64,000 nt of DNA, taken from the NCBI RefSeq assembly GCF_023544465.1, contig NZ_JALPVL010000002.1:558001-622000 (forward strand), read 5' to 3'. The DNA comes from Paractinoplanes maris. Lineage in GTDB: Bacteria > Actinomycetota > Actinomycetes > Mycobacteriales > Micromonosporaceae. Below, piece after piece: positions 5,645-19,131 of the stretch. How positions within the stretch are numbered: position 1 is the first letter of the stretch; each line of letters opens with the position of its first letter. Made by a program: the position numbers and the translations under genes. The notes beneath the pieces were generated by a model. The model saw nothing but the letters and a program-made list of their open reading frames with translations, had not been told where the DNA came from and did not search any database.

Positions 5645-8600
5645 GTGCCGAACGTCTTGCGCGTCAGTGTGCTCGGCCCGGTGCGGGCCTGGCTGGGCGG
5701 GACCGAGCTCGACCTGGGTCCGGCCCGGCAGCGCGCGGTGTTCGCGGTGCTCGCCGCGCACGCCGGCCGGGTGGTGGGGCGCGATGAGCTGATCACCGCC
5801 ATCTGGGGCGACTCGCCGCCGGCCACGGCGGTGGGCAGCGTCTACACGTACGTCTCGGGACTGCGCCGGGTGCTCGAGCCGGAGAATCTGAGCTCCGGCT
5901 CCGGCGGCTACCTGCTGCGCGCCGAGGCCGACGAGCTCGACTCGGTCCGCTTCCACCGGTTGCGCAGCGCCGCCGCCGACCTGCTGGCCGCGGGCGACGC
6001 GGCCGGTGCCATCGCCCGGCTGGACGAGGCCCTGGCGCTGTGGCACGGCGACGCGTACGCCACCCTGGCCGGCCCCTTCCTCGAACTCGACCGTCAGCGG
6101 CTGGCCGAGTTGCGGCTGGCCGCGGCCGAGCAGCGGGCCCGGCTGCGGCTGGAGGCCGGCGGTGACGACGGGCTGATCGCCGAGCTCACCGGTCTCGTCC
6201 GCGACCACCCGCTGCACGAACCCCTGCACGAGTTGCTGATGCGCGCTCTGCACCGGGCCGGCCGGCACGGCGAGGCCCTCGAGGTCTTCCGGACGGCTCG
6301 GCGCACCCTCGTCGCCGAGCTGGGCATCGAGCCGGGCCCGGCACTGCGCTCGTTGCACCGCCAGTTGCTCTCCGGCTCGGCCGAGCGCAGCGCCCCACGT
6401 CCGCTGCCCCACGCCCGGACGGTCGTGCCCACACCCATCGCCAAGGCGCTCCGGGACGGTCTCGGCGGCCGGTCCTGGGTCGGGCGGGTGGCCGAGATTG
6501 ATCATCTGCGTGGTCTGGTCCGCGCGGTCGCGGCGGGCCAGGGCGGAGCCGTCTGGATCTCCGGTGAGCCCGGCATCGGCAAGACCGAGCTGCTCACCCA
6601 CGCCTTCGCCGACGCGGCCCGATTCGGCTGCCGGGTGGCCTGGGGGGCCGCCGATCAGCTCGGCTCGCGCGTCCCTCTGCAGGTGTTGTCGCGGGCCCTC
6701 GGGCTCGAGACGGCGTCCCGGCGGCCGGAGGCCGAGCCGGCCGAGGACCAGATCGTGGCGGCGGTGCGGTCGGCCTGCACGACCGCCCCGCTGGTGCTCG
6801 TGGTCGACGACATGCAGTGGGCCGACAGCGCGACCGTCCGGGCCTGGGAACGGCTGTTGACCCTGGTCGAGAAGCTTCCGCTGCTGCTGGTCGCCGCGGC
6901 CCGGCCGGACGCGCACCAGGCCGATCTGCGCCGCCGCATCCGGGCCCGGCAGCAGATGCCGCTGGACCTCGGCCCGCTCACCGCGGCCGACCTCGACCGG
7001 TTGGTGACCGCCCTGGTCGGCGCCCCGCCCGGCCCCAACCTGCGGGAGGTGACCGCCCGTTCCGGCGGCAACCCGCTCTTCGCCCGCGAGCTGGTCGCGG
7101 CCCTGCGCCAGCGCGACGCCGTCGCGATCAGCGGCGGTCGCGCCGAGATCGGCCCGGACGTGACCGTGGAGCCACCGCAGACCCTGCTCGACGCGGTGCA
7201 CGCCGCGCTCGACGTGCTCTCCCCCGAGACCCGCGAGGTGCTGCGACTGGCCGCGCTGCTCGGCTCGGAGTTCTCGGTGAGCGAGGTCGTGGCGGTCACC
7301 GGACGGTCGGCCCTCGACCTGGTCGGCGCGCTCGAGGAGGCGCTGGCCGCGGCGGTGCTGGTCGACAGCGGGACCGACCTGGCGTTCCGGCACCCGTTCC
7401 TGCGTCAGGTGCTGGTCGCGAGCGTGCCGCCGGCGCTGCGCTCGGGCCTGCACCGGCACGCGGCCGAGGTGCTGGCGGCCGGGGGCAGCCCGCTCACCCG
7501 GGTCGCCGAGCAGCTCAACGCCTCGGCTCCGCTGTCCGACTCGTGGGTGCTCAACTGGCTGGTCACCCATCATGCGGCGGTGGTGCGCCGGGCGCCCCAG
7601 ATCGCCGGCGACCTGATCCGGCGCACGCTGGCCACCGATCTGCCCTCGGCTGAGGAACGAGCCGTCCTGCTGGTCGCCCTCGTCCGGCTCGAATACCGGC
7701 GCGGGCGGGCGCCGCTGCACCAGGCGGAGGAGGCGATGAGCCTGGCCACGGCGCCGGGCGACCGGGCCGAGATGCGCCAGTTGCTCGCCACCATGCGCCA
7801 CCGCCGGGGCGAGACCGCGGAGGCCGAGGCGATGCTGCACGACGCCGTCCACGACGATCGGGTGCCGTCGATCTGGCGCTCGCGGCACCGGGTGCTGCTG
7901 GCCAACTTCCGCCGCGGCGACCTCGAGGATCTCGACGCGGCCGAGCGGCGGGCCCGGGCCGTCCACCACGACGCGGTGGCGGCCGGCCAGCCGTACGAGA
8001 CCGCCTTCGCCCTGCAGACGATCTGGCTGACCAGCTCGATCCGGCGCGACCACGAGCGCGCACTGGAGCATGTGGACCGGGCGCTGAACGTGGTGCGTGG
8101 CCGCCCGGGGCTGGCCGGGACGTATTTCGACCTGCTCGACAACCGGCTGTTCTCGCTGCAGAACCTCGACCGGCTCGACGAGGCGCAGGAGACGCTGCGC
8201 ATCGCGGCCGACTTCGCCGCCGAAGAGCGCCTGCCGGCCGGGCTGCAGGTGGCGACCGCGGTGCAGGACTACTGGCTCGGCCGCTGGGACGAGGCCCTGG
8301 CCGAGGTCGGCGCGGTGACCGAGGACGGCCCGGGCATCACGTTCCACGGTCAGCGCGAGCCGGGCGCGGTGACCATGCTGCTGCACGGTGTCGCCGCGTT
8401 GATCGCGCTGCACCGCGACGCGCGCGACCTGGCCGCGGCCCACCTGGGCGCGGCCGACGCCGTGCCGGCCAGCGAGGCCGAGCGCGAGAACTGCGACTTC
8501 CTGCTGGTGGCGCGGGCACTCGCGGCCGAGCAGCGGGACCGGCCGGACGAGGCCCTCGAACTGCTCGAGCCGCTGCTGCATCCGGCATATGCCCCGATGA

Positions 8601-8950
8601 TGCTGCGCCACCAGTGGCTGCCCGACGTGCTCCGGCTGGCCCGCCGGCACGACCGTCCGGAGGTCGCCGAGCAGGCCGCCGCGATCTGCGCCACCGAGGC
8701 CGCCCGCGAGGTGCGGCCGGCCCGGGCCTACGCGGCGAATCTGCGCTGCCAGGCCCTGCTGCTCGCCGATCCGGCTCCGGCCCTGGCCGCGGCCGCCCAC
8801 TACCGCAAGGTCGGTCGCACCTTCGAGCTGGCCGGGGCGCTGGAGGACGCCGCCGTCCTCAGCGGCGAGCGGCCCGAGGAGGCCCGCCGCCTGTACGCCT
8901 CGATGTCGGCGCGCTGGGACGTCGCGCGCACATCGACTCCCGTGGTTTGA
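5645..8950 (+). CDS. SARP-LAL hybrid transcriptional regulator (OmpR-type HTH, BTAD, NB-ATPase, TPR)
   Basis: The protein of about 1101 residues starts at GTG 5645, chosen for the GGGAGG Shine-Dalgarno at 5635-5640; an upstream extension of 86 codons lacks any domain. Residues 1-95 form the winged-helix DNA-binding domain (LRVSVLGPVRAWL, then AVGSVYTYVSGLRRVLE). Residues 100-250 form the BTAD domain, ending near ELGIEPGPALRSLHRQLL. An AAA/STAND ATPase follows, with Walker A GEPGIGKTEL near 306-314 and Walker B LVLVVDDMQWAD near 384-395. The C-terminal half is helical TPR-like repeats. Such proteins activate neighbouring pathway operons by binding 11-bp-spaced direct repeats. It lies directly upstream of, and on the same strand as, the furanoside hydrolase/ABC locus, so it is the obvious candidate activator. 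That link is inferred from position. Confidence 0.85.
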   Translation: MPNVLRVSVLGPVRAWLGGTELDLGPARQRAVFAVLAAHAGRVVGRDELITAIWGDSPPATAVGSVYTYVSGLRRVLEPENLSSGSGGYLLRAEADELDSVRFHRLRSAAADLLAAGDAAGAIARLDEALALWHGDAYATLAGPFLELDRQRLAELRLAAAEQRARLRLEAGGDDGLIAELTGLVRDHPLHEPLHELLMRALHRAGRHGEALEVFRTARRTLVAELGIEPGPALRSLHRQLLSGSAERSAPRPLPHARTVVPTPIAKALRDGLGGRSWVGRVAEIDHLRGLVRAVAAGQGGAVWISGEPGIGKTELLTHAFADAARFGCRVAWGAADQLGSRVPLQVLSRALGLETASRRPEAEPAEDQIVAAVRSACTTAPLVLVVDDMQWADSATVRAWERLLTLVEKLPLLLVAAARPDAHQADLRRRIRARQQMPLDLGPLTAADLDRLVTALVGAPPGPNLREVTARSGGNPLFARELVAALRQRDAVAISGGRAEIGPDVTVEPPQTLLDAVHAALDVLSPETREVLRLAALLGSEFSVSEVVAVTGRSALDLVGALEEALAAAVLVDSGTDLAFRHPFLRQVLVASVPPALRSGLHRHAAEVLAAGGSPLTRVAEQLNASAPLSDSWVLNWLVTHHAAVVRRAPQIAGDLIRRTLATDLPSAEERAVLLVALVRLEYRRGRAPLHQAEEAMSLATAPGDRAEMRQLLATMRHRRGETAEAEAMLHDAVHDDRVPSIWRSRHRVLLANFRRGDLEDLDAAERRARAVHHDAVAAGQPYETAFALQTIWLTSSIRRDHERALEHVDRALNVVRGRPGLAGTYFDLLDNRLFSLQNLDRLDEAQETLRIAADFAAEERLPAGLQVATAVQDYWLGRWDEALAEVGAVTEDGPGITFHGQREPGAVTMLLHGVAALIALHRDARDLAAAHLGAADAVPASEAERENCDFLLVARALAAEQRDRPDEALELLEPLLHPAYAPMMLRHQWLPDVLRLARRHDRPEVAEQAAAICATEAAREVRPARAYAANLRCQALLLADPAPALAAAAHYRKVGRTFELAGALEDAAVLSGERPEEARRLYASMSARWDVARTSTPVV

Positions 8951-9003
8951 TCAAGCACAGTTCTTGCTTCGCGTGCATTCGTGCGCGCCTATGGTGCGGA
9001 GTC

Positions 9004-9009
9004 TTGACA
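9004..9009 (+). promoter_or_regulatory. Candidate -35 (TTGACA) of the sugar-locus promoter
   Basis: A perfect TTGACA lies 79 bp before the ATG of the binding-protein gene, in the 137-bp gap after the SARP-LAL stop. No clear -10 follows at 16-18 bp, so activator dependence is plausible. This is a weak call. Confidence 0.35.
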
Positions 9010-9087
9010 GAAAAAGTTTGATAGTGCGTGAATGTGTTTCGAGGTGGTTACTCCCCGATGTCACATCCACCGCTAAGGAGCACTGTC

Positions 9088-10167
9088 ATGAGCGTTTCCC
9101 CCGGCCGTTGGCGGCCGGCGGCCGCCATCCTGGGTGCGGCTCTTCTCTTCACCAGCGCCTGCGCCAAGTCCGAGGACAGCGGCACGACCGCGAGCGACAC
9201 GCCCGCGTCGGCCGGTGCCCAGGTCGTGCAGTCGGCCGATCCCAGTGCCGCGACCTGCACCCTCGAAAAGTTCGGCGGCACCAAGTTCGACCTCAAGACC
9301 GCGAAGGTCGGCTTCTCCCAGTCGGAGAAGGAGGCGAACCCGTTCCGCATCGCCGAGACGCAGTCCATCAAGGACGAAGCCGGCAAACTGGGCATTACCC
9401 AGCTCACCACCACGAACGCCAACTCGCAGTTCAACAAACAGATCAGCGACGTCGAGCAGATGATCGACTCCGGTGTTCAGCTGCTGGTGATCGCGCCGCT
9501 CAACTCGGACGGCTGGGATTCCGTCTTTGCCAAGGCGTCGGCCAAGAAGGTCCCGATCATCACGATCGACCGCAAGATCAACGCTGACCCGTGCAAGGAC
9601 TACCTGACCTTCATCGGTTCGGACTTCGCCGAGCAGGGCAAGCGGGCCGCGGACGAGATGGCCAAGGCGATGGGCAACAAGGGCAAGGTCGCGATCCTGC
9701 TGGGCTCGCCCGGCAACAACGTGACCACGCTGCGGACGAGCGGTTTCAAGGACCAGATGACCAAGGTCGCGCCGGACATTCAGGTCGTCTTCGAACAGAC
9801 GGGCAACTTCGCCCGCGAGGAAGGGCAGAAAGTCACCGAGCAACTACTGCAGTCCAACCCGGACATCAATGGCATCTACGGCGAGAACGACGAGATGGCG
9901 CTCGGCGCGATCACGGCCCTGAAGGGCGCCGGCAAGAAAGCCGGCGACGTCAAGGTGGTGTCGATCGACGGCACCAAGGGCGCTGTGCAGGCCATCGTGG
10001 ACGGTTGGGCCTCCGCGGTGATCGAGTCGAACCCACGGTTCGGCCCGCTCGCCTTCGAGACCGCGCAGAAGTTCCTCGACGGTGAGCCGGTCGGCCAGGA
10101 CATCATCATCCAGGACCGGCAATACGGCACGGACAACGCCAAGACGGACATCAGTAGCGCGTACTGA
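9088..10167 (+). CDS. Sugar ABC transporter substrate-binding lipoprotein, YtfQ-like
   Basis: The 359-residue lipoprotein starts at ATG 9088 with Shine-Dalgarno AAGGAG about 7 nt upstream. Its signal peptide ends in a lipobox (FTSAC, lipidated Cys25). The mature part is a Peripla_BP_4 fold: KVGFSQSEKEANPFRIAET, LLVIAPLNSDGWD, PIITIDRKI, IGSDFAEQGK, IYGENDEMALGAI and VVSIDGTKGAVQAI. These segments line up closely, from memory, with E. coli YtfQ (VGFSQ, RAAET, IAPVVATGW, DRSID, NDDM.IGAIQAIKEAG, SIDG), the galactofuranose receptor, better than with RbsB or XylF. It delivers sugar to the two permeases encoded downstream. A strong hairpin follows the stop codon and may keep this gene's transcript in excess, as is usual for binding proteins. 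Confidence 0.85.
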   Translation: MSVSPGRWRPAAAILGAALLFTSACAKSEDSGTTASDTPASAGAQVVQSADPSAATCTLEKFGGTKFDLKTAKVGFSQSEKEANPFRIAETQSIKDEAGKLGITQLTTTNANSQFNKQISDVEQMIDSGVQLLVIAPLNSDGWDSVFAKASAKKVPIITIDRKINADPCKDYLTFIGSDFAEQGKRAADEMAKAMGNKGKVAILLGSPGNNVTTLRTSGFKDQMTKVAPDIQVVFEQTGNFAREEGQKVTEQLLQSNPDINGIYGENDEMALGAITALKGAGKKAGDVKVVSIDGTKGAVQAIVDGWASAVIESNPRFGPLAFETAQKFLDGEPVGQDIIIQDRQYGTDNAKTDISSAY

Positions 10168-10172
10168 GCACC

Positions 10173-10212
10173 GGGCCCGGCGACACGAACTAGGAAGCGC
10201 GTCGCCGGGCCC
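10173..10212 (+). terminator. GC-rich hairpin after the binding-protein gene
   Basis: GGGCCCGGCGAC (10173-10184) and GTCGCCGGGCCC (10201-10212) form a perfect 12-bp stem with a 16-nt loop and no U-tract. It could be a partial terminator or mRNA-stabilising element between the binding-protein gene and the GH2 gene. Confidence 0.6.
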
Positions 10213-10319
10213 GCTCCGGCCCATCGCTACATATTGAAGTTCGTCTATTGCTGACTGTGTGCGATCACGTCAGTATGTGTGCATCCCCGCACGGCTCACT
10301 CTTTCGAAGGAGAGAGAAC

Positions 10320-13058
10320 GTGACCGCACATCCCCGAAGACTGCTGGCCCTCGCGGCCGCGGCGCTGACCGCCACCGCCGGCACCGTCGTCGCCACCGCA
10401 TCCCCCGCTGCGGCGTTCGTCCCCAAGACGCCGCCGATGACCACGCCGTGGACCGGCCAGGTCAGCACGACCAACCCGCTTCCCGAATACCCCCGCCCCC
10501 AGCTGACGCGCACCGACTGGCAGAGCCTCAACGGCATCTGGCAGTTCGCCGGCGCCGCCAACCTCACCACCCCGCCGACGGGCCAGACCCTCGGCGAGGA
10601 AATCCTCGTGCCGTACCCGATCGAGAGCGCGCTCTCCGGGATCATGCGCCGCCAGGACTACTCGTACTACAAGCGCTCCTTCACGGTTCCGGCCGGCTGG
10701 TCGGGCAAGAACGTCCAGCTCAACTTCGGTGCCGTCGACTGGCAGTCCAAGGTCTGGGTGAACGGCACCCTGCTCGGCACGCACGAGGGCGGCTACGACA
10801 AGTTCTCGTACGACATCACCAGCGCCCTGCGCTCCGGCAGCAACGAGATCATCGTCGGCGTCTGGGATCCCACCGACAGCCAGGACATCCCGGTCGGCAA
10901 GCAGCGCATCAACCGCGGCGGCATCTTCTACACGCCGTACTCGGGCATCTGGCAGACCGTGTGGCTCGAGCCGACCAACCCGGCCCGCATCACCCGGCTC
11001 GACACCACGCCCAACGTCGCGGCCGGCGCTCTCGACCTGATCGTGCAGGCGGCCGGCGCGAGCGGCCAGCCGGTCACCGCCCAGGTGCTCTCGGGCGGCA
11101 CGGTTGTCGGCTCGGCCACCGGCACGGTCGGCTCGTCGTTCCGCGTCCCGGTGCCCAACGCTCGCTTGTGGACGCCCGACGACCCCTTCCTGTACGACCT
11201 CCGGGTCACCCTGGGCAGCGGTGACGCCGTCGGCGGCTACTTCGGCATGCGCTCGCTCGGCAAGGCGATGCTCGGCGGCGTGCTGCGGCCGACGCTCAAC
11301 GGCAAGTTCGTCTTCCAGCTCGGCACGCTCGACCAGGGCTACTGGCCGGACGGCATCTCGACCGCCCCGACCGACGCGGCGCTGCGGTTCGACCTCGAAC
11401 AGCAGAAGTCGCTGGGCTTCAACATGGTGCGCAAGCACATCAAGGTCGAGAACGACCGCTGGTTCTATCACGCCGACCGCCTCGGCCTGATGGTCTGGCA
11501 GGACATGCCCGCGCTGGCCAGCGGCCGCGAGCCGTCGGCGACCGGGCGCACCCGCTTCGAGAAGGAGCTGCGCGAGCTGGTCGACGAGCACAAGGGCATC
11601 ACGTCGATCGTCCAGTGGGTGCCGTTCAACGAGGGCTGGGGCGAGTACGACGCCGGCCGGATCGCCGATCTGGTCAAGAGCTGGGACCCGACCCGCATGG
11701 TCAACCACAACTCCGGCTCCAACTGCTGCGACTCCGATCCCGATCCGGGCAACGGCGACGTCATCGACGACCACCAGTACGTCGGCCCGGGCATCGGACG
11801 GGCGCCGACCGCGACCCGCTTCGTGGTCAACGGCGAGTACGGCGGCCTGGGCCTGCGCACCGGCCGCGAGTGGCCGACAGCCGGCAAGTTCGCGTACGAG
11901 TGGCTGCCCGACTCCACCGCGCTGACCAACCGCTACGTGCAGATCACCAGCCGGATGGTCGACCTGATCAACGCCAACGGGCTGTCCGGCTCGGTCTACA
12001 CCGAGCCGACCGACGTCGAGGAGGAGCTCAACGGCTTCTTCACCTACGACCGGCAACAGCAGAAGATGGACTTCGCCCGGGTCCGCGCGGTGCACCAGCA
12101 GGTGCTCGGGGCGGCCAACGGCAGCACCCTCTCGACCGGCAAGCTGGTCTCGCTGCGGGTCACCACACCCGGCTACACGAACCGCTACCTGCGGCACGCC
12201 GCCGGCGCCGCCCGCACCGACGTGCTCAGCACGAGCAGCTCCACCAGCGACCGGCAGGACGCGACCTTCTGGGTGCGCCCCGGCCTGTCCAATGCGGCCT
12301 GCTACTCGTTCGAGTCGCGCAACTTCCCCGGTCAGTATCTGCGGCACCGCAACAACCGGGTCTACCGCGAGGCCGGCACCGGCGGCACGTTCGCGGCCGA
12401 CGCCACCTATTGCGGCCGGACCGGTCTCTCCGGGGGCGGCACCTCGCTCGAGTCGGCCAACCTGCCCGGCTCCTACCTGCGCCACCGCGGCGAGGAGGTC
12501 TGGGTCGAACAGAACACCGGCGGATCCTTCGCCAACGACGCCACCTGGACGGTGGCCGCGCCGCTGTGGCGCAGCGGGGCCGACCTGACCACCGGTCAGA
12601 ACCGGTCGTTCCGGGTCACCACGGCCGGCTACGACACTCGTTACCTCCGGCACCGCGACAGCCTGGCCCGCACCGACGTGATCACCACCGGCAGCCCGGC
12701 CGCCGACCGGCAGGATGCCACCTTCACGGTCCGCGCCGGCCTGGCCGACACCAGCTGCTTCTCGTTCGAATCGGTCAACTACCCCGGTCGCTTCCTGCGG
12801 CACGCCAACTACCGCCTGCAGACGGCGACCAGCGACGGAACGGCGACGTTCCAGCAGGACGCCACGTTCTGCGCCCAGCCCGCCCGCAACGGCGGGGCGG
12901 GCAACCTCTCACTCGAATCGATCAACTACCCCGGCTACTTCTGGCGGCACTACGCCGAGGCGGTCTACATCGCCACCAACGGCGGTGGCAACACATGGGA
13001 CAGCGCCGGCAGCTACAACGCCGACGCGACTTGGAACAACGCCGCCCCCTTGGGGTAG
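10320..13058 (+). CDS. Secreted GH2 family glycoside hydrolase with two C-terminal AbfB (CBM42-like) domains
   Basis: The protein (about 912 residues) starts at GTG 10320, preceded by AAGGAG. It has an export signal with a twin Arg (HPRRLLALAA) ending near ASPAAAF. The GH2 sugar-binding jelly roll contains RRQDYSYYKRSF, followed by the Ig-like domain and a TIM barrel with acid/base Glu438 in WVPFNEGWGEYD and candidate nucleophile Glu506 in VNGEYGG. From about residue 608 and again from about 761 come two AbfB modules, each built of repeats ending in YLRHR and DATF/DATW, the family that binds arabinofuranose side chains. GH2 includes beta-galactosidases, glucuronidases, mannosidases and, as I recall, actinomycete exo-beta-galactofuranosidases. 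Placement inside a YtfQRT-YjfF-like transporter operon favours a furanoside substrate such as galactofuranosides or arabinofuranose-decorated glycans. Specificity is inferred. Confidence 0.82.
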   Translation: MTAHPRRLLALAAAALTATAGTVVATASPAAAFVPKTPPMTTPWTGQVSTTNPLPEYPRPQLTRTDWQSLNGIWQFAGAANLTTPPTGQTLGEEILVPYPIESALSGIMRRQDYSYYKRSFTVPAGWSGKNVQLNFGAVDWQSKVWVNGTLLGTHEGGYDKFSYDITSALRSGSNEIIVGVWDPTDSQDIPVGKQRINRGGIFYTPYSGIWQTVWLEPTNPARITRLDTTPNVAAGALDLIVQAAGASGQPVTAQVLSGGTVVGSATGTVGSSFRVPVPNARLWTPDDPFLYDLRVTLGSGDAVGGYFGMRSLGKAMLGGVLRPTLNGKFVFQLGTLDQGYWPDGISTAPTDAALRFDLEQQKSLGFNMVRKHIKVENDRWFYHADRLGLMVWQDMPALASGREPSATGRTRFEKELRELVDEHKGITSIVQWVPFNEGWGEYDAGRIADLVKSWDPTRMVNHNSGSNCCDSDPDPGNGDVIDDHQYVGPGIGRAPTATRFVVNGEYGGLGLRTGREWPTAGKFAYEWLPDSTALTNRYVQITSRMVDLINANGLSGSVYTEPTDVEEELNGFFTYDRQQQKMDFARVRAVHQQVLGAANGSTLSTGKLVSLRVTTPGYTNRYLRHAAGAARTDVLSTSSSTSDRQDATFWVRPGLSNAACYSFESRNFPGQYLRHRNNRVYREAGTGGTFAADATYCGRTGLSGGGTSLESANLPGSYLRHRGEEVWVEQNTGGSFANDATWTVAAPLWRSGADLTTGQNRSFRVTTAGYDTRYLRHRDSLARTDVITTGSPAADRQDATFTVRAGLADTSCFSFESVNYPGRFLRHANYRLQTATSDGTATFQQDATFCAQPARNGGAGNLSLESINYPGYFWRHYAEAVYIATNGGGNTWDSAGSYNADATWNNAAPLG

Positions 13059-13069
13059 CGGAGAGACCG

Positions 13070-13103
13070 CCGGGCCGGGTGGTGCCCTGACCACCCGGCC
13101 CGG
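13070..13103 (+). terminator. Hairpin between the GH2 gene and the transporter ATPase gene
   Basis: CCGGGCCGGGTGGT (13070-13083) and ACCACCCGGCCCGG (13090-13103) form a perfect 14-bp stem with a 6-nt loop. There is no U-run. It sits just before the Shine-Dalgarno of the ATPase gene and may attenuate or stabilise the transcript. Confidence 0.6.
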
Positions 13104-13121
13104 CACCGATAGGAGAGCTGC

Positions 13122-14642
13122 ATGGCGTTGCTGGAAGTCATCGACGTCTCGAAGATATTTCCGGGCGTCCGCGCCCTCGACCAGGTCTCCTTCACCCTGA
13201 AACCGGGTGAGGTGCACGCGCTCGTCGGGGAGAACGGCGCCGGCAAGTCCACTTTGATCAAGGTGTTGACCGGCGTCTACCAGCCGGACGGGGGCGAGCT
13301 CCGCTATCAGGACGAGCCGGCTCAGTTCGGCACTCCGATGGACGCTCAGCGGGCCGGCATCTCGACCATCTACCAGGAGGTCAACCTCGTCCCGCTGATG
13401 AGCGTGGCGCAGAACCTCTTCCTCGGCCGCGAACCTCGCCGCCTCGGCCTCATCGACCGCAAGCGGATGGACCGCGAGGCCGGCGAGATCCTCTCCGGCT
13501 ACGGCGTCACCACTGACGTCCGCCGCCAGCTCGGCACCCTCGCTCTCGGCGCGCAGCAGATGGTCGCCCTGGCCCGGGCCGTCATGATCGACGCCAAGGT
13601 CGTCATCATGGACGAGCCCACCTCGTCGCTGGAACCGCGCGAGGTGCAGACCTTGTTCGGCGTCATCCGCGATCTGCACGCCCGCGGCATCGGCATCATC
13701 TACGTCAGCCACCGGCTCGACGAGCTCTACCAGATCTGCGACACAGTCACGATCCTGCGCGACGGCCGGCTGGTGCACACCGGCCGGCTGGCCGACCTGG
13801 AACGCATCAAGCTGGTGTCGCTCATGCTCGGGCGTGACATGGCCGAGGTACGCCGGGAGGGGGCGACCGCCTTCTCCGGGGCGGCCACCGCCGACGCCGG
13901 CGCCGCGCCCGTGCTGCGGGTACGCGAACTGAACAGCCGGCACAAGCTGCACGACGTGAGCTTCGACGTGCGCCCCGGCGAGGTCGTCGGCCTGGGCGGC
14001 CTGCTCGGGGCCGGACGCAGCGAGACCATCAAGGCCATCGGCGGGGCTTACCACCTGGACAGCGGCGGCATCCAGGTCGACGGCAAGGATCTGAAGAAGC
14101 CCACCCCCGAACGCGCGGTGCGCTTCGGCATCGCGGTGCAACCCGAGGACCGCAAGGCCGAGGGGATCGTGCCCGGCCTGTCGGTCCGCGAGAACATCGC
14201 CCTCGCGGTGCTCCCCCGCGTGTCCCGGTTCGGGTTCGTCTCGGACGCCAAGGTCGACGAGATCGTCGACCGGTACATGAAGCGCCTGCGCATCAAGGCG
14301 TCCAGTCCCGATCAGGCGGTCGGCGACCTCTCCGGCGGCAACCAGCAGAAGGTGCTCCTGGCCCGGCTGCTCGCGACCGGCCCCAAGGTGCTGCTGCTGG
14401 ATGAGCCGACGCGCGGCATCGACATCGGCGCCAAGGCCGAGGTCCAGTCGCTGATCGACGAGCTGGCCGCCGAGGGTCTCGGCGTGGTGCTGGTCTCGTC
14501 GGACGCCGAGGAGCTGGTCGAAGGCTCGGACCGGGTGGTGGTGCTGCGCGACGGCGTCGTGGTCGGCACCCTCACCGGCGCCGAGGTGACCACCGAGGAC
14601 CTGATGTCCACCATCGCGACGGAGGCCCCGCGTGAGCACTGA
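13122..14642 (+). CDS. CUT2-type sugar ABC transporter double ATPase, YtfR/RbsA-like
   Basis: The 506-residue protein carries two fused ABC domains, the hallmark of CUT2 (RbsA/MglA/YtfR) importers. The first has Walker A GENGAGKST (near residues 36-44), a degenerate signature LALGAQQMV, and Walker B VVIMDEPTSSLEP. The second has the normal CUT2 degenerate Walker A GLLGAGRSE, signature LSGGNQQKV and Walker B LLLDEPTRGIDIG. It powers uptake through the two downstream permeases. The ATG start follows AGGAG, and its 3' end overlaps the next GTG by 11 bp, which indicates translational coupling. It shares no regulatory features of its own beyond the preceding hairpin. Confidence 0.92.
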   Translation: MALLEVIDVSKIFPGVRALDQVSFTLKPGEVHALVGENGAGKSTLIKVLTGVYQPDGGELRYQDEPAQFGTPMDAQRAGISTIYQEVNLVPLMSVAQNLFLGREPRRLGLIDRKRMDREAGEILSGYGVTTDVRRQLGTLALGAQQMVALARAVMIDAKVVIMDEPTSSLEPREVQTLFGVIRDLHARGIGIIYVSHRLDELYQICDTVTILRDGRLVHTGRLADLERIKLVSLMLGRDMAEVRREGATAFSGAATADAGAAPVLRVRELNSRHKLHDVSFDVRPGEVVGLGGLLGAGRSETIKAIGGAYHLDSGGIQVDGKDLKKPTPERAVRFGIAVQPEDRKAEGIVPGLSVRENIALAVLPRVSRFGFVSDAKVDEIVDRYMKRLRIKASSPDQAVGDLSGGNQQKVLLARLLATGPKVLLLDEPTRGIDIGAKAEVQSLIDELAAEGLGVVLVSSDAEELVEGSDRVVVLRDGVVVGTLTGAEVTTEDLMSTIATEAPREH

Positions 14643-15600
14643 AACGGTTGCCGCCCGGCCCGTCGTCGACTCCGCCAGACTCAAAGCCTGGCTGCCCAAG
14701 TACGGCGTCTACGCCGCCATCGTGCTGCTGGTCGTCTACAACATCTTCTTCACCCCGTATTTCGCGACCTGGAGCAACCTGCGCATCCAGCTGATCCAGG
14801 TGGCGCCGATCGTGATCGTGGCGCTCGGCATGGCGCTGGTGATCGGCACCGAGGGCATCGATCTCTCGGTCGGCTCGGTCATGGCCCTGGCCGCCGCCTT
14901 CATCCCCCTCTATCTCGGGTACGGGGTGGTGGCCGCGATCCTGGTCGCGCTGATGGCCGGGGTCGCGGTCGGGCTGATCAACGGCATCCTGGTGGCCAAG
15001 GTCGGGTTGCAGCCGATCGTTGCCACGCTGGCCCTGTTCGTGGGTGGTCGCGGCCTGGCCGTGGTGATCAGCGAGGGCAAGCTGGTCGACATCCGCAACG
15101 ACGACTTCCTCTACCTCGGCTCGGGTGACCTGCTCGGCATCCCGGTGCTGGTCTGGATCGCGGCGCTGCTGGTGCTGGTCGTGGCGTTCGTGGTGCGCCG
15201 TACGGTCTTCGGCCGGCGGCTGCTGGCGATCGGCGGCAACCGGCCGGCTGCCGAGCTGGCCGGTCTGCCGGTCAAGCGGGTCCTGATCACCGTCTACGTG
15301 GTCTGCGCGGTGCTCGCCTCGATCGCCGGGTTGCTCTCGGTGGCCCGCATCCAGTCCAGCGACGCCTCCTCCGTGGGCCTGCTCATCGAGCTCTCCGCGA
15401 TCACCGCCGTCGTGGTCGGCGGCACCCCGCTCACCGGCGGCAAGGTGCGCGTCCTGGGCACCGTGGCCGGCGCCCTGCTCATGCAGCTCGTGATCGCCAC
15501 GATGATCAAGCACAACCTGCAGCCCTCCACCACCGAGATGGTGCAGGCGGTCATCATTCTGATCGCCGTCTACGTGGCCCGAGAGAGGAAGACGCGGTGA
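14632..15600 (+). CDS. CUT2 sugar ABC transporter permease, YtfT-like
   Basis: The 322-residue polytopic protein has about 9-10 hydrophobic segments and the BPD_transp_2 signature region IVIVALGMALVIGTEGIDLSVGSVM. The coupling segment is near FGRRLLAIGGNRPAAELAGL. It is the first of two permeases that should form a heterodimeric channel with the ATPase and the YtfQ-like receptor, as in YtfT/YjfF. The GTG start overlaps the ATPase gene by 11 bp. The stop overlaps the next gene by 4 bp (GTGA). Confidence 0.9.
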   Translation: MSTETVAARPVVDSARLKAWLPKYGVYAAIVLLVVYNIFFTPYFATWSNLRIQLIQVAPIVIVALGMALVIGTEGIDLSVGSVMALAAAFIPLYLGYGVVAAILVALMAGVAVGLINGILVAKVGLQPIVATLALFVGGRGLAVVISEGKLVDIRNDDFLYLGSGDLLGIPVLVWIAALLVLVVAFVVRRTVFGRRLLAIGGNRPAAELAGLPVKRVLITVYVVCAVLASIAGLLSVARIQSSDASSVGLLIELSAITAVVVGGTPLTGGKVRVLGTVAGALLMQLVIATMIKHNLQPSTTEMVQAVIILIAVYVARERKTR

Positions 15601-16616
15601 CCATGGGAATCGCATCGGACCCGGAGACCCCGGCGATCGTCGTCGAGGACGTCCGCAAGGCCGAGCGCACCGACCGGATCGTCGGCACGATCCAGCGGCA
15701 AGGCGCGCTCGCCGTCCTGATCGTCCTCACGCTGATCGCGCTCGCCACCTTCCCCAACTTCCGCAGCTTCGACAACGCGGCCACCATCCTGGTCGCGGCC
15801 GCGCCGCCGATGCTGATCGCGCTGGGGATGACCTTCGTGATCATCACGGGTGGCATCGACCTGTCGGTCGGCTCGCTCTATGTGCTCGGCGGCGTGCTCG
15901 CTGCCTGGGCCTCGCAGTACGGGCTCCTGGCCGCGTTCGCGCTGCCGCTGGCCGTGTGCGGGACCATCGGCCTGGCCAACGGGCTCCTTATCGCGTACAC
16001 CCGGATGGCCCCCTTCATCGTGACGCTGGCCGCGCTGCTGGGCGCGCGCGGGCTCATGCGGGCGATCAGCTCCGAGGGCTCGAACACCTATCTGGTCCAG
16101 GACGACGCGTTCCGCAAGCTCGGCAACGGCTCGTTCCTCGACATCGGCTATCAGGTGTGGCTGGTCGCGGCGCTGGTCGTGATCGGCATGGTCGTGCTGG
16201 CCCGCAGCCGGTTCGGCCACTCGATCTACGCCGTCGGCGGCAGCGAGGACGCGGCCAGTCTGATGGGCGTGCCGGTGCGCCGCACCAAGGTCTGGGTCTA
16301 TGTGTTGTCGGGCCTGCTGGCCGGGCTGGCCGGCGCGATCAACGCGGCCAAGCTCGGCTCGGGCGTGACGGTGCTGGGCACCGGCATGGAGCTGGACGCG
16401 ATCGCGGCCGTGGTGATCGGCGGGACGCTGCTCACCGGAGGAGCCGGCACGATCGCCGGAACCATCGCCGGTGTGCTGCTGCTCGGCGTGATCCAGAACC
16501 TGATCAATCAGGTCGGCAACGTCAACAGCAACTGGCAACAGGTGATCAGCGGCGCGTTCCTCGCCCTGGTCGTGGTGGCCCAGACCTATCTCGTACGGCT
16601 GAGAAGGGTCACTTAA
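15597..16616 (+). CDS. CUT2 sugar ABC transporter permease, YjfF-like
   Basis: The 339-residue membrane protein is of the same BPD_transp_2 family as its neighbour, with LIALGMTFVIITGGIDLSVGSLYVLGG and the loop FGHSIYAVGGSEDAASLMGVPV. A hydrophilic N-terminal tail of about 35 residues precedes TM1. Two distinct permeases after one double ATPase is the arrangement of the E. coli galactofuranose importer (YtfT plus YjfF); ribose, xylose and galactose systems usually have one. The stop TAA (16614-16616) overlaps the stop of the convergent anti-sigma gene, so this is the end of the operon. Confidence 0.9.
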   Translation: MTMGIASDPETPAIVVEDVRKAERTDRIVGTIQRQGALAVLIVLTLIALATFPNFRSFDNAATILVAAAPPMLIALGMTFVIITGGIDLSVGSLYVLGGVLAAWASQYGLLAAFALPLAVCGTIGLANGLLIAYTRMAPFIVTLAALLGARGLMRAISSEGSNTYLVQDDAFRKLGNGSFLDIGYQVWLVAALVVIGMVVLARSRFGHSIYAVGGSEDAASLMGVPVRRTKVWVYVLSGLLAGLAGAINAAKLGSGVTVLGTGMELDAIAAVVIGGTLLTGGAGTIAGTIAGVLLLGVIQNLINQVGNVNSNWQQVISGAFLALVVVAQTYLVRLRRVT

Positions 16617-17323
16617 TCGACCTCGGCCGTGCCCAGCACGTGACCCTGGTGGTCCTGGACCTCGATCCGGCTGACATTACGCAGCTGGATCGAGGTCGCG
16701 CCGATCACCTTGGCGTTGCCGCTCGGTGTCGGCCCCCAGACCATGGCCTGCTCGACCTGGCCGGACGCACCGCGAACCTGGCAGTGGAACGGCCCGTCGC
16801 CGCTGAGCCGGCTGACGTCGAGCGCGACCGAGACACCCCACGTCTTGGGTGTGAGCACCGCCTGACCGGCCATGCCGCTGCCCTGGGCCGGCTCGAACCG
16901 GGCGGTCACCAGCTGCGGGCTCGGCAGCGCCTGGGGCCGGCGATCCTCGCGGTTGCCGCGCACCACCCCGATGCCGATGGCCACCGCCACCAGCACCACC
17001 GCCGCGGCGGCCAGCCAGCGCACGCCGGCCATCCGGCTCTGCCGGGAACGCTCGGCCCGCAGGCGGCGGATCAGCCCGTCGATGTTCTCCTGGCTCGGCC
17101 GAGCCGACATGCTGACCGGGGCCGGCGTGACCCCCTCGTCGGCCCGCTCGGCGTCGGGCAGGCGGCGCAGCAGCTCGGGAACGGCGGCGAGACGGTCGAG
17201 CTCGTCCCGGCAGCGGTCGCAGTCGCGCAGATGGGCGTCGAGCCGCTCGGTGTCGCCGTCGTCGAGCCCGCCGAGCAGATAGCCGCCGAGCAGGCGGTGC
17301 AGCTCATCGTGGTCGGTGCTCAC
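16613..17323 (-). CDS. Zinc-finger anti-sigma factor (zf-HC2, RskA-like C-terminus)
   Basis: The 236-residue protein starts at GTG 17323, overlapping the sigma-factor stop by 4 bp. The N-terminal anti-sigma domain carries the ZAS motif His31-x3-Cys35-x2-Cys38 (HLRDCDRC). One transmembrane helix lies at about residues 101-121 (LAAAAVVLVAVAIGIGVV). The extracytoplasmic C-terminal part resembles the RskA/anti-sigma-K domain (VSVALDVSRLSGDGPF). It should hold the co-encoded ECF sigma factor at the membrane until proteolysis or redox change releases it. The upstream in-frame extension is an artefact of high GC content. Confidence 0.85.
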   Translation of the reverse strand: MSTDHDELHRLLGGYLLGGLDDGDTERLDAHLRDCDRCRDELDRLAAVPELLRRLPDAERADEGVTPAPVSMSARPSQENIDGLIRRLRAERSRQSRMAGVRWLAAAAVVLVAVAIGIGVVRGNREDRRPQALPSPQLVTARFEPAQGSGMAGQAVLTPKTWGVSVALDVSRLSGDGPFHCQVRGASGQVEQAMVWGPTPSGNAKVIGATSIQLRNVSRIEVQDHQGHVLGTAEVD

Positions 17324-17841
17324 CGCAGCACCCCCATCTCCTCGAACACGGTGCGCAGGGCCCGCACCGCGTAATAGGCCCGGGACTTGACCGTGCCCTC
17401 GGGCACCGCGAGCTTGCGGGCCGCGTCGGCCACACTCTGACCCTCGTAATACATCGCCCGGACGACGGCCTGATGATCGGCCGAGAGCCGCTCGATCGCC
17501 TCGGCCACCAGCCAGCCCTCGACCATGCGGTCGACGTTGTCGGTCGACGGCATCGCGTTGACCGCGGCCTCGTCGGCCACCAGATGCGGGCGGCGCTGCT
17601 CGGCCCGCCACGCGTTGGTGACCACGTTGCGAGCAATCGTCAGCAGGTAGGAACGGGTGCGGCCGGGGTCGGGGTCGAGGTGGTCGATGTGCTTCCAGGC
17701 GCGCAGCAGAGTCTCCTGCACCAGATCCTCGGCCCGGTGCCGATCGTGCACATACCGCAGGACGAAGCTGAGCAGGACCGCGTAGTGCTCGGTGTAGAGC
17801 GCGGTCATCAGCTCCTCGTCGGGGCTCACCCGTCGCCTCAT
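17320..17841 (-). CDS. ECF-family RNA polymerase sigma factor
   Basis: The protein (about 173 residues from the ATG at 17841) has sigma region 2 (YTEHYAVLLSFVLRYVHD then AEDLVQETLLRAWK) and region 4 with its HTH (LSADHQAVVRAMYYEG, VPEGTVKSRAYYAVRAL), joined by a short linker and without regions 1 and 3, as in group IV sigmas. It is translated with the zinc-finger anti-sigma through a GTGA overlap. The start was chosen because MRRRVSPDEEL fits ECF proteins; a longer upstream reading to 17973 adds basic residues with no domain. Target promoters cannot be read here. The neprosin gene on the same strand is separated by a terminator hairpin. Confidence 0.88.
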   Translation of the reverse strand: MRRRVSPDEELMTALYTEHYAVLLSFVLRYVHDRHRAEDLVQETLLRAWKHIDHLDPDPGRTRSYLLTIARNVVTNAWRAEQRRPHLVADEAAVNAMPSTDNVDRMVEGWLVAEAIERLSADHQAVVRAMYYEGQSVADAARKLAVPEGTVKSRAYYAVRALRTVFEEMGVLR

Positions 17842-17991: not shown

Positions 17992-19131
17992 TCAGTCCTT
18001 ACAACCCGTCTCTCCCGGGCCGCCGTAGCGGAACGACCGGGTCGAATCCTTCACCGGGAGGACGTTGTAGATGCTGACCGGCGTCGGCCGCATGAAGAGG
18101 CTGACCGGCGGGCCGTCGACAAATCCGACGCTCGACATCCGCGCCGCCGCGTTGTCGTCGGTCGGGATCGTGCCGTTGCCCATCGCGGTGCACGGCTTGG
18201 CCCGGGTCGCCGCCACCTCGCCGAAGACCTGGACGAAACCGGAGCGGTTGAACGTGATGCCCTGGTCGTTCCAGATCTTCTCGGGGAAGTAACCGACCCA
18301 CTCGGAGTCGTATGCGACCCACCAGGCGTCCTTGAAATACTGGATGCCGAATTTCTTGGTGACGCCGTAGGTCAGCGTGTCGCCGGGCTTGACGCTCGTG
18401 CTGACCTGCTGGAAACCGCAGGTGTTGTAGCAGGTCGGCTCGTCGTTGACCCAGTGGAAGACGAACAGGTGCGGGTCGTCGTCGCCGTTGACCAGGCGGT
18501 CGACCGTCCAGCCGATCTCGACGATCTGCTTCTTGTCGGCCGACTGGAGCGCGACCTCGGCCAGCGAGTGGTAATCGTTCTTGTACAGATCGGGCTTGGC
18601 GATCGTCACGTTGGAGAAGATGCCGGTGGTGTCGGCGGCCTGCGACCCGACGTTGTAGAAGTACTTGACCTTGTTGTCCTCGGCCTTCACGCCCAGCGGT
18701 TTCGGCGGCACGGCGTCGGTCATCTCCGAGTGCAGCACATCGTTCTTGCCGTTGCTGCGGCCCTTCGGCCCGTATCGCCCGCGGGGCACCAGCGAGCCGC
18801 TGGCGTCCAGCGGCGCCGCCGAGAGCCCCTGCGCCCGCAGAGTGCTGCTGCTCGCGCCGCCGCGGCCCTTCTTGATCTTCCGAGGGCGCTCGCCCCAGGG
18901 CAGGACGGGCGGCGGGGTGAAGTTGGTGACGTCGGCGGCGGGAGTCTCGTCGGCCGCCGGCTCATCACCTGGAGCGTCGGCGGCATCATCGGCGGCAGCC
19001 GCGGACGAGCTCGCCTCGGGCGGGCCGGCGATCTGGTCGGCGCCCGCATTCACTGTGGAAACGACGCCGATGGCGCCGACCACGGCGACCGCTAGGCCGG
19101 CGGCTAGGAGACCGCGGCGTGACTTCAACAC
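17992..19131 (-). CDS. Secreted neprosin-family (DUF239-like) protein
   Basis: The 379-residue protein starts at GTG 19131, with GAGGAC upstream. A signal peptide (LLAAGLAVAVVGAIGVVSTV) is followed by an Ala/Pro/Asp-rich linker (about residues 35-75) and then the neprosin core. Features of that core are QIVEIGWTVD, PHLFVFHWVNDEPTCYNTCG, DAWWVAYDSEWVGYFPEKIW and VQVFGEVAA. Plant neprosins are glutamic prolyl endopeptidases whose two catalytic Glu residues lie in this domain. The Glu of FGEVA and an upstream Glu (EIGWT or DSEW) are candidates here, but I cannot assign them with certainty. Four Cys near the core and C-terminus (TCYNTC, KPCTA, TGCKD) may form disulfides. Role: extracellular proteolysis or wall-associated protein; unproven. 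Confidence 0.72.
   Translation of the reverse strand: MLKSRRGLLAAGLAVAVVGAIGVVSTVNAGADQIAGPPEASSSAAAADDAADAPGDEPAADETPAADVTNFTPPPVLPWGERPRKIKKGRGGASSSTLRAQGLSAAPLDASGSLVPRGRYGPKGRSNGKNDVLHSEMTDAVPPKPLGVKAEDNKVKYFYNVGSQAADTTGIFSNVTIAKPDLYKNDYHSLAEVALQSADKKQIVEIGWTVDRLVNGDDDPHLFVFHWVNDEPTCYNTCGFQQVSTSVKPGDTLTYGVTKKFGIQYFKDAWWVAYDSEWVGYFPEKIWNDQGITFNRSGFVQVFGEVAATRAKPCTAMGNGTIPTDDNAAARMSSVGFVDGPPVSLFMRPTPVSIYNVLPVKDSTRSFRYGGPGETGCKD

What the first reader, a model, noticed from the sequence alone, without database searches (positions are those of the whole stretch)
5645..16616. A candidate galactofuranose/arabinofuranose scavenging locus
The transporter has one receptor, one double ATPase and two different permeases, and the receptor reads like E. 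coli YtfQ (galactofuranose) rather than RbsB. Inserted between receptor and ATPase is a secreted GH2 enzyme carrying two AbfB modules of the arabinofuranose-binding kind, and a SARP-LAL regulator precedes the set. Some actinomycete exo-beta-galactofuranosidases are, as I recall, GH2 enzymes. The simplest reading is a self-contained unit that frees furanose sugars from polymers such as fungal galactomannan, mycobacterial galactan or arabinan and imports them as furanoses. I know of no described locus combining these parts under a SARP-LAL regulator.
Basis: partly seen in the sequence, partly recalled or inferred. Interest (0 to 1): 0.75.

Follow-up and report, generated by a model that had tools for sequence, protein, structure and literature searches.

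The report
Galactofuranose-freeing enzyme with dedicated importer
A soil actinomycete carries side by side a secreted enzyme predicted to clip the rare sugar galactofuranose from polymers and an importer likely to take up the freed sugar, and the same pairing recurs in different gene orders across many actinobacteria, which gives this sugar a testable route from foreign polymer to cell metabolism.

Summary
In detail: SARP-type regulator, receptor lipoprotein, secreted GH2 with two AbfB modules, double ATPase and two permeases lie at 5645-16616. The GH2 is closest by far to a crystallised Streptomyces JHA19 beta-D-galactofuranosidase (702 bits, 59% identity), keeping 17 of the 18 acids mutated there. 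The receptor is not a strict YtfQ/GafA (168 bits, cut-off 510) but belongs to a sister clade of GafA; grouping with RbsB is rejected (AU p 0.005). Of the 80 nearest GH2 relatives kept, 45 carry this transporter within 10 kb; of 43 receptor loci in the family, 27 carry the GH2; four arrangements occur. Seven of 88 transporter loci hold galT or galK, none of 123 loci matched araB, and the same genome has a separate canonical Gaf operon beside araB. So the sugar is most likely D-galactose released as galactofuranose, not arabinofuranose; import as furanose is inferred. The SARP gene adjoins the receptor in 20 of 47 same-genus loci; LacI or DeoR regulators often stand there elsewhere. New variant of a known kind.

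The parts
5645..8950 (+). SARP-type regulator (Trans_reg_C + BTAD + AAA ATPase), 1101 aa; regulatory role at this locus inferred
   Evidence: adjacency in near relatives
9004..9036 (+). conserved upstream element TTGACA...GATAGTGCGTGAATGTG, putative promoter/operator of the receptor gene
   Evidence: alignment; similar element in 21 of 82 loci; single site in own genome within 3 mismatches; 0 in 100 shuffles of the window. The sigma-70 consensus scan found no promoter
9088..10167 (+). receptor lipoprotein (CUT2 substrate-binding protein), sister clade of GafA
10165..10225 (.). strong hairpin between receptor and GH2 genes (possible attenuation or mRNA end; function inferred)
   Evidence: -35.8 kcal/mol, z -4.2, 0 of 200 shuffles as stable
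10320..13058 (+). secreted GH2 enzyme, predicted exo-beta-D-galactofuranosidase (GH2_18-like)
12156..12548 (+). first AbfB module (residues 613-743), 50% identical to the second
12612..13037 (+). second AbfB module (residues 765-906)
13122..14642 (+). double ATPase, best NCBIfam model YtfR (583 bits, cut-off 850)
14632..15600 (+). permease A (AraH/YtfT/RbsC-like)
15597..16616 (+). permease B, best NCBIfam model YjfF (234 bits, cut-off 363)

Best explanation
This is likely a D-galactofuranose scavenging module, in which a secreted GH2_18-type enzyme is predicted to clip terminal beta-D-galactofuranose from foreign polymers and the adjacent CUT2 ABC transporter would import the freed galactose, probably still in furanose form. 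Inside the cell the sugar would close to galactopyranose spontaneously and enter the Leloir pathway (galK and galT are present elsewhere in the genome). Shown by calls: gene content, enzyme homology with conserved catalytic-region acids, the receptor's place beside GafA, repeated linkage of enzyme and transporter, linkage of the same transporter clade to galT/galK in some relatives, and no UDP-galactopyranose mutase match over the cut-off in this genome. Inferred: enzyme activity, substrate polymer (fungal galactomannan or another beta-Galf glycan), ligand and ring form at import, and control by the SARP regulator.
For: Enzyme: best PDB match 9j6n/9j6m beta-D-galactofuranosidase, 702 bits over residues 29-604, next 441 and 265; 338 of 569 aligned positions identical, 59%. 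Of 18 acids mutated in ORF1110 (Table 2 of PMC4560423, passages), 17 fit the chain at one offset and all 17 are identical here; the 18th, D336, whose mutant kept full activity, does not fit. D395 and E438 are kept in 80 of 80 relatives. ORF1110 released galactose from A. fumigatus galactomannan and showed no arabinofuranosidase activity. Receptor: joined to GafA with 99/96 support and 100/99 in a reduced set, RbsB grouping rejected at p-AU 0.005; Arg38 and Asp111 of YtfQ, the salt bridge that makes room for galactofuranose (PMC10191376, passages), kept in 73 of 73 clade rows; the six best Foldseek rows are GafA structures, the first with bound beta-D-Galf. Linkage: 45 of 80 GH2 loci carry transporter genes; 27 of 43 receptor loci in the family carry the GH2; 34 of 47 in the genus, window included; four arrangements, at least 16 changes of arrangement/presence state on a quick 82-row tree. 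Galactose: DeoR-galT-galK beside the transporter in L170-L175 and galT in L058, i.e. 7 of 88 transporter loci; in L172 these stand beside transporter plus GH2-2xAbfB, GalK and GalT over their TIGRFAM cut-offs. Own genome: galK, galT found, no UDP-galactopyranose mutase over cut-off, separate Gaf operon with araB.
Against: The receptor misses the YtfQ equivalog cut-off (168 of 510 bits) and is only 33-37% identical to three GafA proteins and the own-genome GafA (42% to a Paenibacillus one) against 35-36% to ribose receptors. The Trp37 of YtfQ is Phe in 73 of 73 clade rows, as in RbsB. The clade itself has only moderate support as one group (87/75, 90/97), and long branches are present in both trees. 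VIA-align cannot separate GafA from ribose receptors: 7e7m 37.1, 2vk2 36.9, 2ioy 36.2, 6hbd 36.2. 35 of 80 GH2 loci lack the transporter, 10 of them with less than full flanks; 16 of 43 receptor loci lack the GH2. Five receptor loci without GH2 (L170, L171, L173-L175) stand next to an alpha-galactosidase, which would free galactopyranose. No binding or activity was measured.
Confidence: 0.62

Rival explanations
1. The transporter imports D-galactopyranose (or both ring forms): Galf released outside mutarotates first, and the clade is a general galactose importer that pairs with whichever galactosidase is at hand.
For: Five of 43 receptor-anchored loci, all without GH2, carry a close alpha-galactosidase plus galT-galK; Trp37 replaced by Phe; structure scores do not separate furanose from pyranose receptors.
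Against: Sister to GafA with RbsB excluded; Arg38/Asp111 kept; 22% identity to MglB; 27 of the same 43 loci pair with the GH2, against 5 with the close alpha-galactosidase (weaker or partial matches in L162 and L200).
Confidence: 0.22
2. The locus scavenges L-arabinofuranose (or both furanoses), as the AbfB modules and the GafA kinship might suggest.
For: AbfB modules; GH2_18/19 include arabinofuranosidases and galactofuranosidases (PMC12243196, passages); GafAMs binds both sugars (PMC10191376, passages).
Against: ORF1110 cleaved Galf but not Araf, and its AbfB was dispensable; own-genome araB matched in 0 of 123 loci (araA, araD not searched); galT/galK in 7 of 88; araB lies beside the separate canonical Gaf operon of the same genome.
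Confidence: 0.1
3. The set is a ribose or other CUT2 sugar operon into which an unrelated GH2 gene happened to insert.
For: In this locus the GH2 sits between receptor and ATPase, and ribose receptors are about as similar as GafA by identity.
Against: Pairing recurs in four arrangements over many genera; ribose grouping rejected.
Confidence: 0.04

Closest known systems
Gaf ABC transporters (E. coli YtfQRT-YjfF, M. smegmatis MSMEG_1712, Shewanella GafABCD)
   Same: One receptor, one double ATPase, two permeases; receptor sister to GafA; Arg38/Asp111 and the DR motif kept
   Different: 33-37% identity to three of them and to the own-genome GafA; Trp37 to Phe with one added residue (EANPFR against ESGWR); a Cys pair present in 34 of 36 rows and absent from the two GafA rows; linked to a galactofuranosidase and in some loci to galT/galK, whereas the Gaf study reports no direct link to galactose catabolic genes and frequent links to arabinose genes (PMC10191376, section read)
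GH2_18 beta-D-galactofuranosidase of Streptomyces sp. JHA19 (PDB 9j6m/9j6n; ORF1110 by my inference from residue positions)
   Same: 59% identity over 569 aligned positions, 17 of 18 tested acids kept; ORF1110 also has AbfB at the C-terminus
   Different: Two AbfB modules here; the JHA19 report names an adjacent second GH2 hydrolase and, in the passages I read, no transporter
AfsR/SARP-LAL regulators
   Same: Trans_reg_C + BTAD + AAA domain order
   Different: Far under the AfsR equivalog cut-off (217 of 1430 bits); lies beside a sugar module

Membership tests
GH2_18 beta-D-galactofuranosidase | GH2 fold with NE catalytic motif and the acids needed by ORF1110 | tested here: met
   Pfam GH2 N-terminal domains; NEGWG at 437-441; 17 of 18 mutated positions fit and are identical; D336 (mutant fully active) does not fit the chain
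GH2_18 beta-D-galactofuranosidase | closer to GH2_18 than to GH2_19 | tested here: met
   9j6m (GH2_18) 701 bits against 7xyr (GH2_19) 265 bits (subfamily labels from PMC12243196, passages). CAZy subfamily profiles were not available
GH2_18 beta-D-galactofuranosidase | releases Galf from pNP-beta-D-Galf or polymer | not testable with these tools
   needs assay
Gaf (YtfQ) transporter | one receptor, double ATPase, two permeases | tested here: met
Gaf (YtfQ) transporter | YtfQ equivalog score (NF041827, 510 bits) | tested here: not met
   168 bits
Gaf (YtfQ) transporter | 45% or more identity used to collect GafA proteins in PMC10191376 | tested here: not met
   33-37% to YtfQ, GafAMs, GafASw and the own-genome GafA; 42% to the Paenibacillus GafA
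Gaf (YtfQ) transporter | Arg38-Asp111 pair | tested here: met
   window and 73 of 73 clade rows
Gaf (YtfQ) transporter | stacking Trp37 | tested here: not met
   Phe in window and 73 of 73 clade rows. That Trp37 is the stacking Trp named in the paper is my inference
Ribose (RbsB) receptor | groups with RbsB in a tree | tested here: not met
   p-AU 0.005
SARP-LAL regulator | SARP N-terminus plus large AAA ATPase half | tested here: met
SARP-LAL regulator | controls this operon | not testable with these tools
   adjacent within 1.3 kb in 20 of 47 same-genus loci, window included

The most novel reading that the evidence does not exclude
An unnamed clade of actinobacterial CUT2 transporters is the dedicated D-galactofuranose importer that catches the furanose as the partner GH2_18 enzyme frees it, before it mutarotates, while the same genome keeps a second, canonical Gaf transporter for L-arabinofuranose: two furanose importers with split labour.
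Probability: 0.5. Interest if true: 0.66.

Novelty: new variant of a known kind. Interest (0 to 1): 0.56.

Why it matters
Galactofuranose is absent from mammals but common in fungi and mycolata (recalled). [quoted passage not shown] A conserved enzyme-importer pair, sometimes beside galT-galK, gives a physiological reason for furanose-specific transport and a source of galactofuranosidases chosen by gene context.

Tried and rejected
Self-recycling of the organism's own Galf: no UDP-galactopyranose mutase over the cut-off in the genome, four weak partial matches only, so the sugar is more likely foreign. Chance insertion of GH2: disfavoured by recurrence in four arrangements. Fold comparison as arbiter: VIA-align ties GafA and ribose receptors, so the claim rests on the trees. 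Other shared neighbours: clustering of 1088 called ORFs in the 80 loci gave the module, a LacI group, a DeoR group, GH127 and GH92 as the main recurrent ones, plus sets confined to Streptomyces-type loci; a Pfam scan of 107 neighbouring proteins from 22 of the 45 transporter loci (my choice; one protein per cluster, so it cannot show recurrence) gave mixed families. The sigma-70 scan found no promoter in 8900-16700. Literature: searches (open-licence PMC papers only) listed no paper that I recognised as describing a galactofuranosidase-transporter locus; passages of PMC10115798 and PMC8035080 gave none. The structure paper PMC11627007 was not held.

Rows dropped or limits: five receptor loci (L198-L202) did not match my signature search and are absent from the tree; they lack GH2. 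L032 and L041 show only the two permeases and L011 only the receptor; they are counted among the 45. The 80 GH2 loci are the best of 585 confirmed relatives. Flanks are 10 kb and 59 of 80 loci have them in full, so absences are lower bounds. L026 and L197 have identical receptors, so the named and unnamed sets overlap. Some own-genome paralogues were read on the wrong strand and re-read (own_L134 may still be off). My ORF caller misread some genes (e.g. in L176), so presence was scored by tblastn.
Full report
OBSERVATION. Domains are as described: Trans_reg_C-BTAD-AAA regulator; Peripla_BP_4 receptor; GH2 with two AbfB stretches; double ABC_tran ATPase; two BPD_transp_2 permeases. ATPase and permease genes overlap; a 61-nt hairpin (z -4.2) follows the receptor. 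The receptor has a lipobox TSAC. The GH2 reads as secreted (hydrophobic N-terminus ending ASPAAA, printed; no predictor was run).

ENZYME. Against solved structures the catalytic part (residues 29-604) matches the Streptomyces JHA19 beta-D-galactofuranosidase chain 9j6n with 702 bits, then 441 (7sf2) and 265 (7xyr, GH2_19), with beta-galactosidases under 100. Identity is 338 of 569 aligned positions, 59%. Mutagenesis of ORF1110 in PMC4560423 (passages) tested 18 acids. At one numbering offset 17 of them fit the chain, and all 17 are identical here, including D423 and E464, whose loss left 1.8% and 2.6% activity; the 18th, D336, whose mutant was fully active, does not fit, so that the chain is ORF1110 itself is my inference. 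The equivalents of D423 and E464, D395 and E438, are kept in 80 of 80 relatives. ORF1110 cleaved Galf but not Araf substrates and freed galactose from A. fumigatus galactomannan; its AbfB domain was dispensable (PMC5391426, whole text). The GH2 subfamily study places furanosidases in GH2_18/19 (PMC12243196, passages).

RECEPTOR. Best PDB hits are MSMEG_1712 structures; the best NCBIfam model is YtfQ, but at 168 of 510 bits. Identity is 33-37% to three GafA proteins and the own-genome one, 42% to a Paenibacillus GafA, and 35-36% to ribose receptors. In a 47-row tree the receptors of these loci group with GafA at 99/96, RbsB outside; in a 30-row tree at 100/99, and placing them with RbsB is rejected (p-AU 0.005), as is GafA with RbsB (0.017). 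The clade itself is moderately supported (87/75 and 90/97), and both trees warn of long branches. In 73 of 73 clade rows Arg38 and Asp111 of YtfQ are kept, the residues of the space-making salt bridge (PMC10191376, passages), and Trp37 is Phe: EANPFR (TAAFR in one) where GafA has ESGWR. A Cys pair (model residues 28 and 140) occurs in 34 of 36 aligned rows, the two exceptions being the canonical GafA rows. The AlphaFold2 model is confident (pLDDT 92.5). Foldseek puts six GafA structures first, but VIA-align ties them with ribose receptors, so the fold does not settle the ligand.

LINKAGE. From the enzyme side, the best 80 of 585 confirmed GH2 relatives in named genomes were searched within 10 kb: 45 hold transporter genes of this clade, 35 do not, 10 of these with cut flanks. 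From the receptor side, 40 of 150 family genomes have a receptor at E 1e-60; of the 43 loci other than the window, 27 hold the GH2 and 16 do not. In the genus (60 genomes, window included) 34 of 47 receptors have a GH2 within 12 kb, and 29 of 31 GH2 orthologues over 80% identity have a receptor beside them; of 18 GH2 rows at 57-60% only 5 do. With 0-5 GH2 matches per roughly 10 Mb genome, chance proximity would be about 1% (my arithmetic). GH2 stands inside the operon, after it, before it, or divergent to it; the five states (with 'no GH2') need at least 16 changes on a quick 82-row tree. Paenibacillus L087 has a GH2 relative, a GH127 and a canonical GafA within about 11 kb.

WHICH SUGAR. In L170-L175 a DeoR-galT-galK set lies beside the transporter and in L058 a galT: 7 of 88 transporter loci. 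A search with the own-genome araB matched none of 123 loci; araA and araD were not searched. L172 combines DeoR-galT-galK, the transporter and a GH2 with two AbfB modules; GalK 308.8 bits (cut-off 226.65), GalT 130.9 (cut-off 102.1). The window's genome holds galK and galT, has no UDP-galactopyranose mutase over cut-off, and has a separate canonical gaf operon with two LacI regulators and L-ribulokinase (783 bits, cut-off 583). Against the furanose reading: L170, L171 and L173-L175 lack GH2 and carry an alpha-galactosidase. Hence D-galactose is well supported; the ring form at import is not proven.

REGULATION. The SARP gene lies within 1.3 kb of the receptor in 20 of 47 same-genus loci; of 19 SARP orthologues at 79% identity or more, 15 lie near the locus and 4 do not. 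Elsewhere LacI (23 of 80 and 18 of 43 loci) or DeoR (15 of 80 and 15 of 43) regulators occur. An upstream element at 9004-9036 is similar in 21 of 82 loci, all of the window's arrangement or near kin, with or without SARP, and occurs once in the genome. So the SARP is a candidate local regulator, unproven.

POLYMER. GH92 (mannosidase family, recalled) is near 9 of 80 GH2 loci, but 8 of those 9 lack the transporter; GH127 is near 9 of 80 and 6 of 43. Fungal galactomannan is plausible, not shown.

VERDICT. A real, conserved pairing of a predicted galactofuranosidase with a sister clade of Gaf transporters, for which my searches found no description. The parts are of known kinds, so I rate it a new variant of a known kind.

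Noticed in passing
L035:12416-14896, L087:14249-18358 and other loci: A GH127 (beta-L-arabinofuranosidase family) gene recurs near the galactofuranosidase in 9 of 80 named and 6 of 43 family loci and in Paenibacillus; since beta-L-Araf and alpha-D-Galf share ring stereochemistry (recalled), an alpha-galactofuranosidase is conceivable.
   Followed up: partly
L170, L171, L173, L174, L175: Transporter of this clade beside DeoR-galT-galK and an alpha-galactosidase (with NPCBM domains in L170), without the GH2.
   Followed up: partly
window 9175-10164 (receptor), model residues 28 and 140: A Cys pair in 34 of 36 rows, absent from the two canonical GafA rows, could join an N-terminal stretch to the body of the receptor by a disulfide; distance not measured.
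   Followed up: partly
G000:C22:477246-478925 (L204): Second GH2 relative in the same genome (50% identity) with PA14 and laminin-G domains, near a GH5-like gene and without a CUT2 transporter of this kind in the 20 kb fetched.
   Followed up: partly
L165, L166, L168, L013: Two SARP-like genes in tandem upstream of the locus.
   Followed up: no
window 17992-19131 (-) and 16613-17611 (-): A Neprosin-domain protein and a zf-HC2 protein lie just downstream of the locus on the other strand.
   Followed up: no
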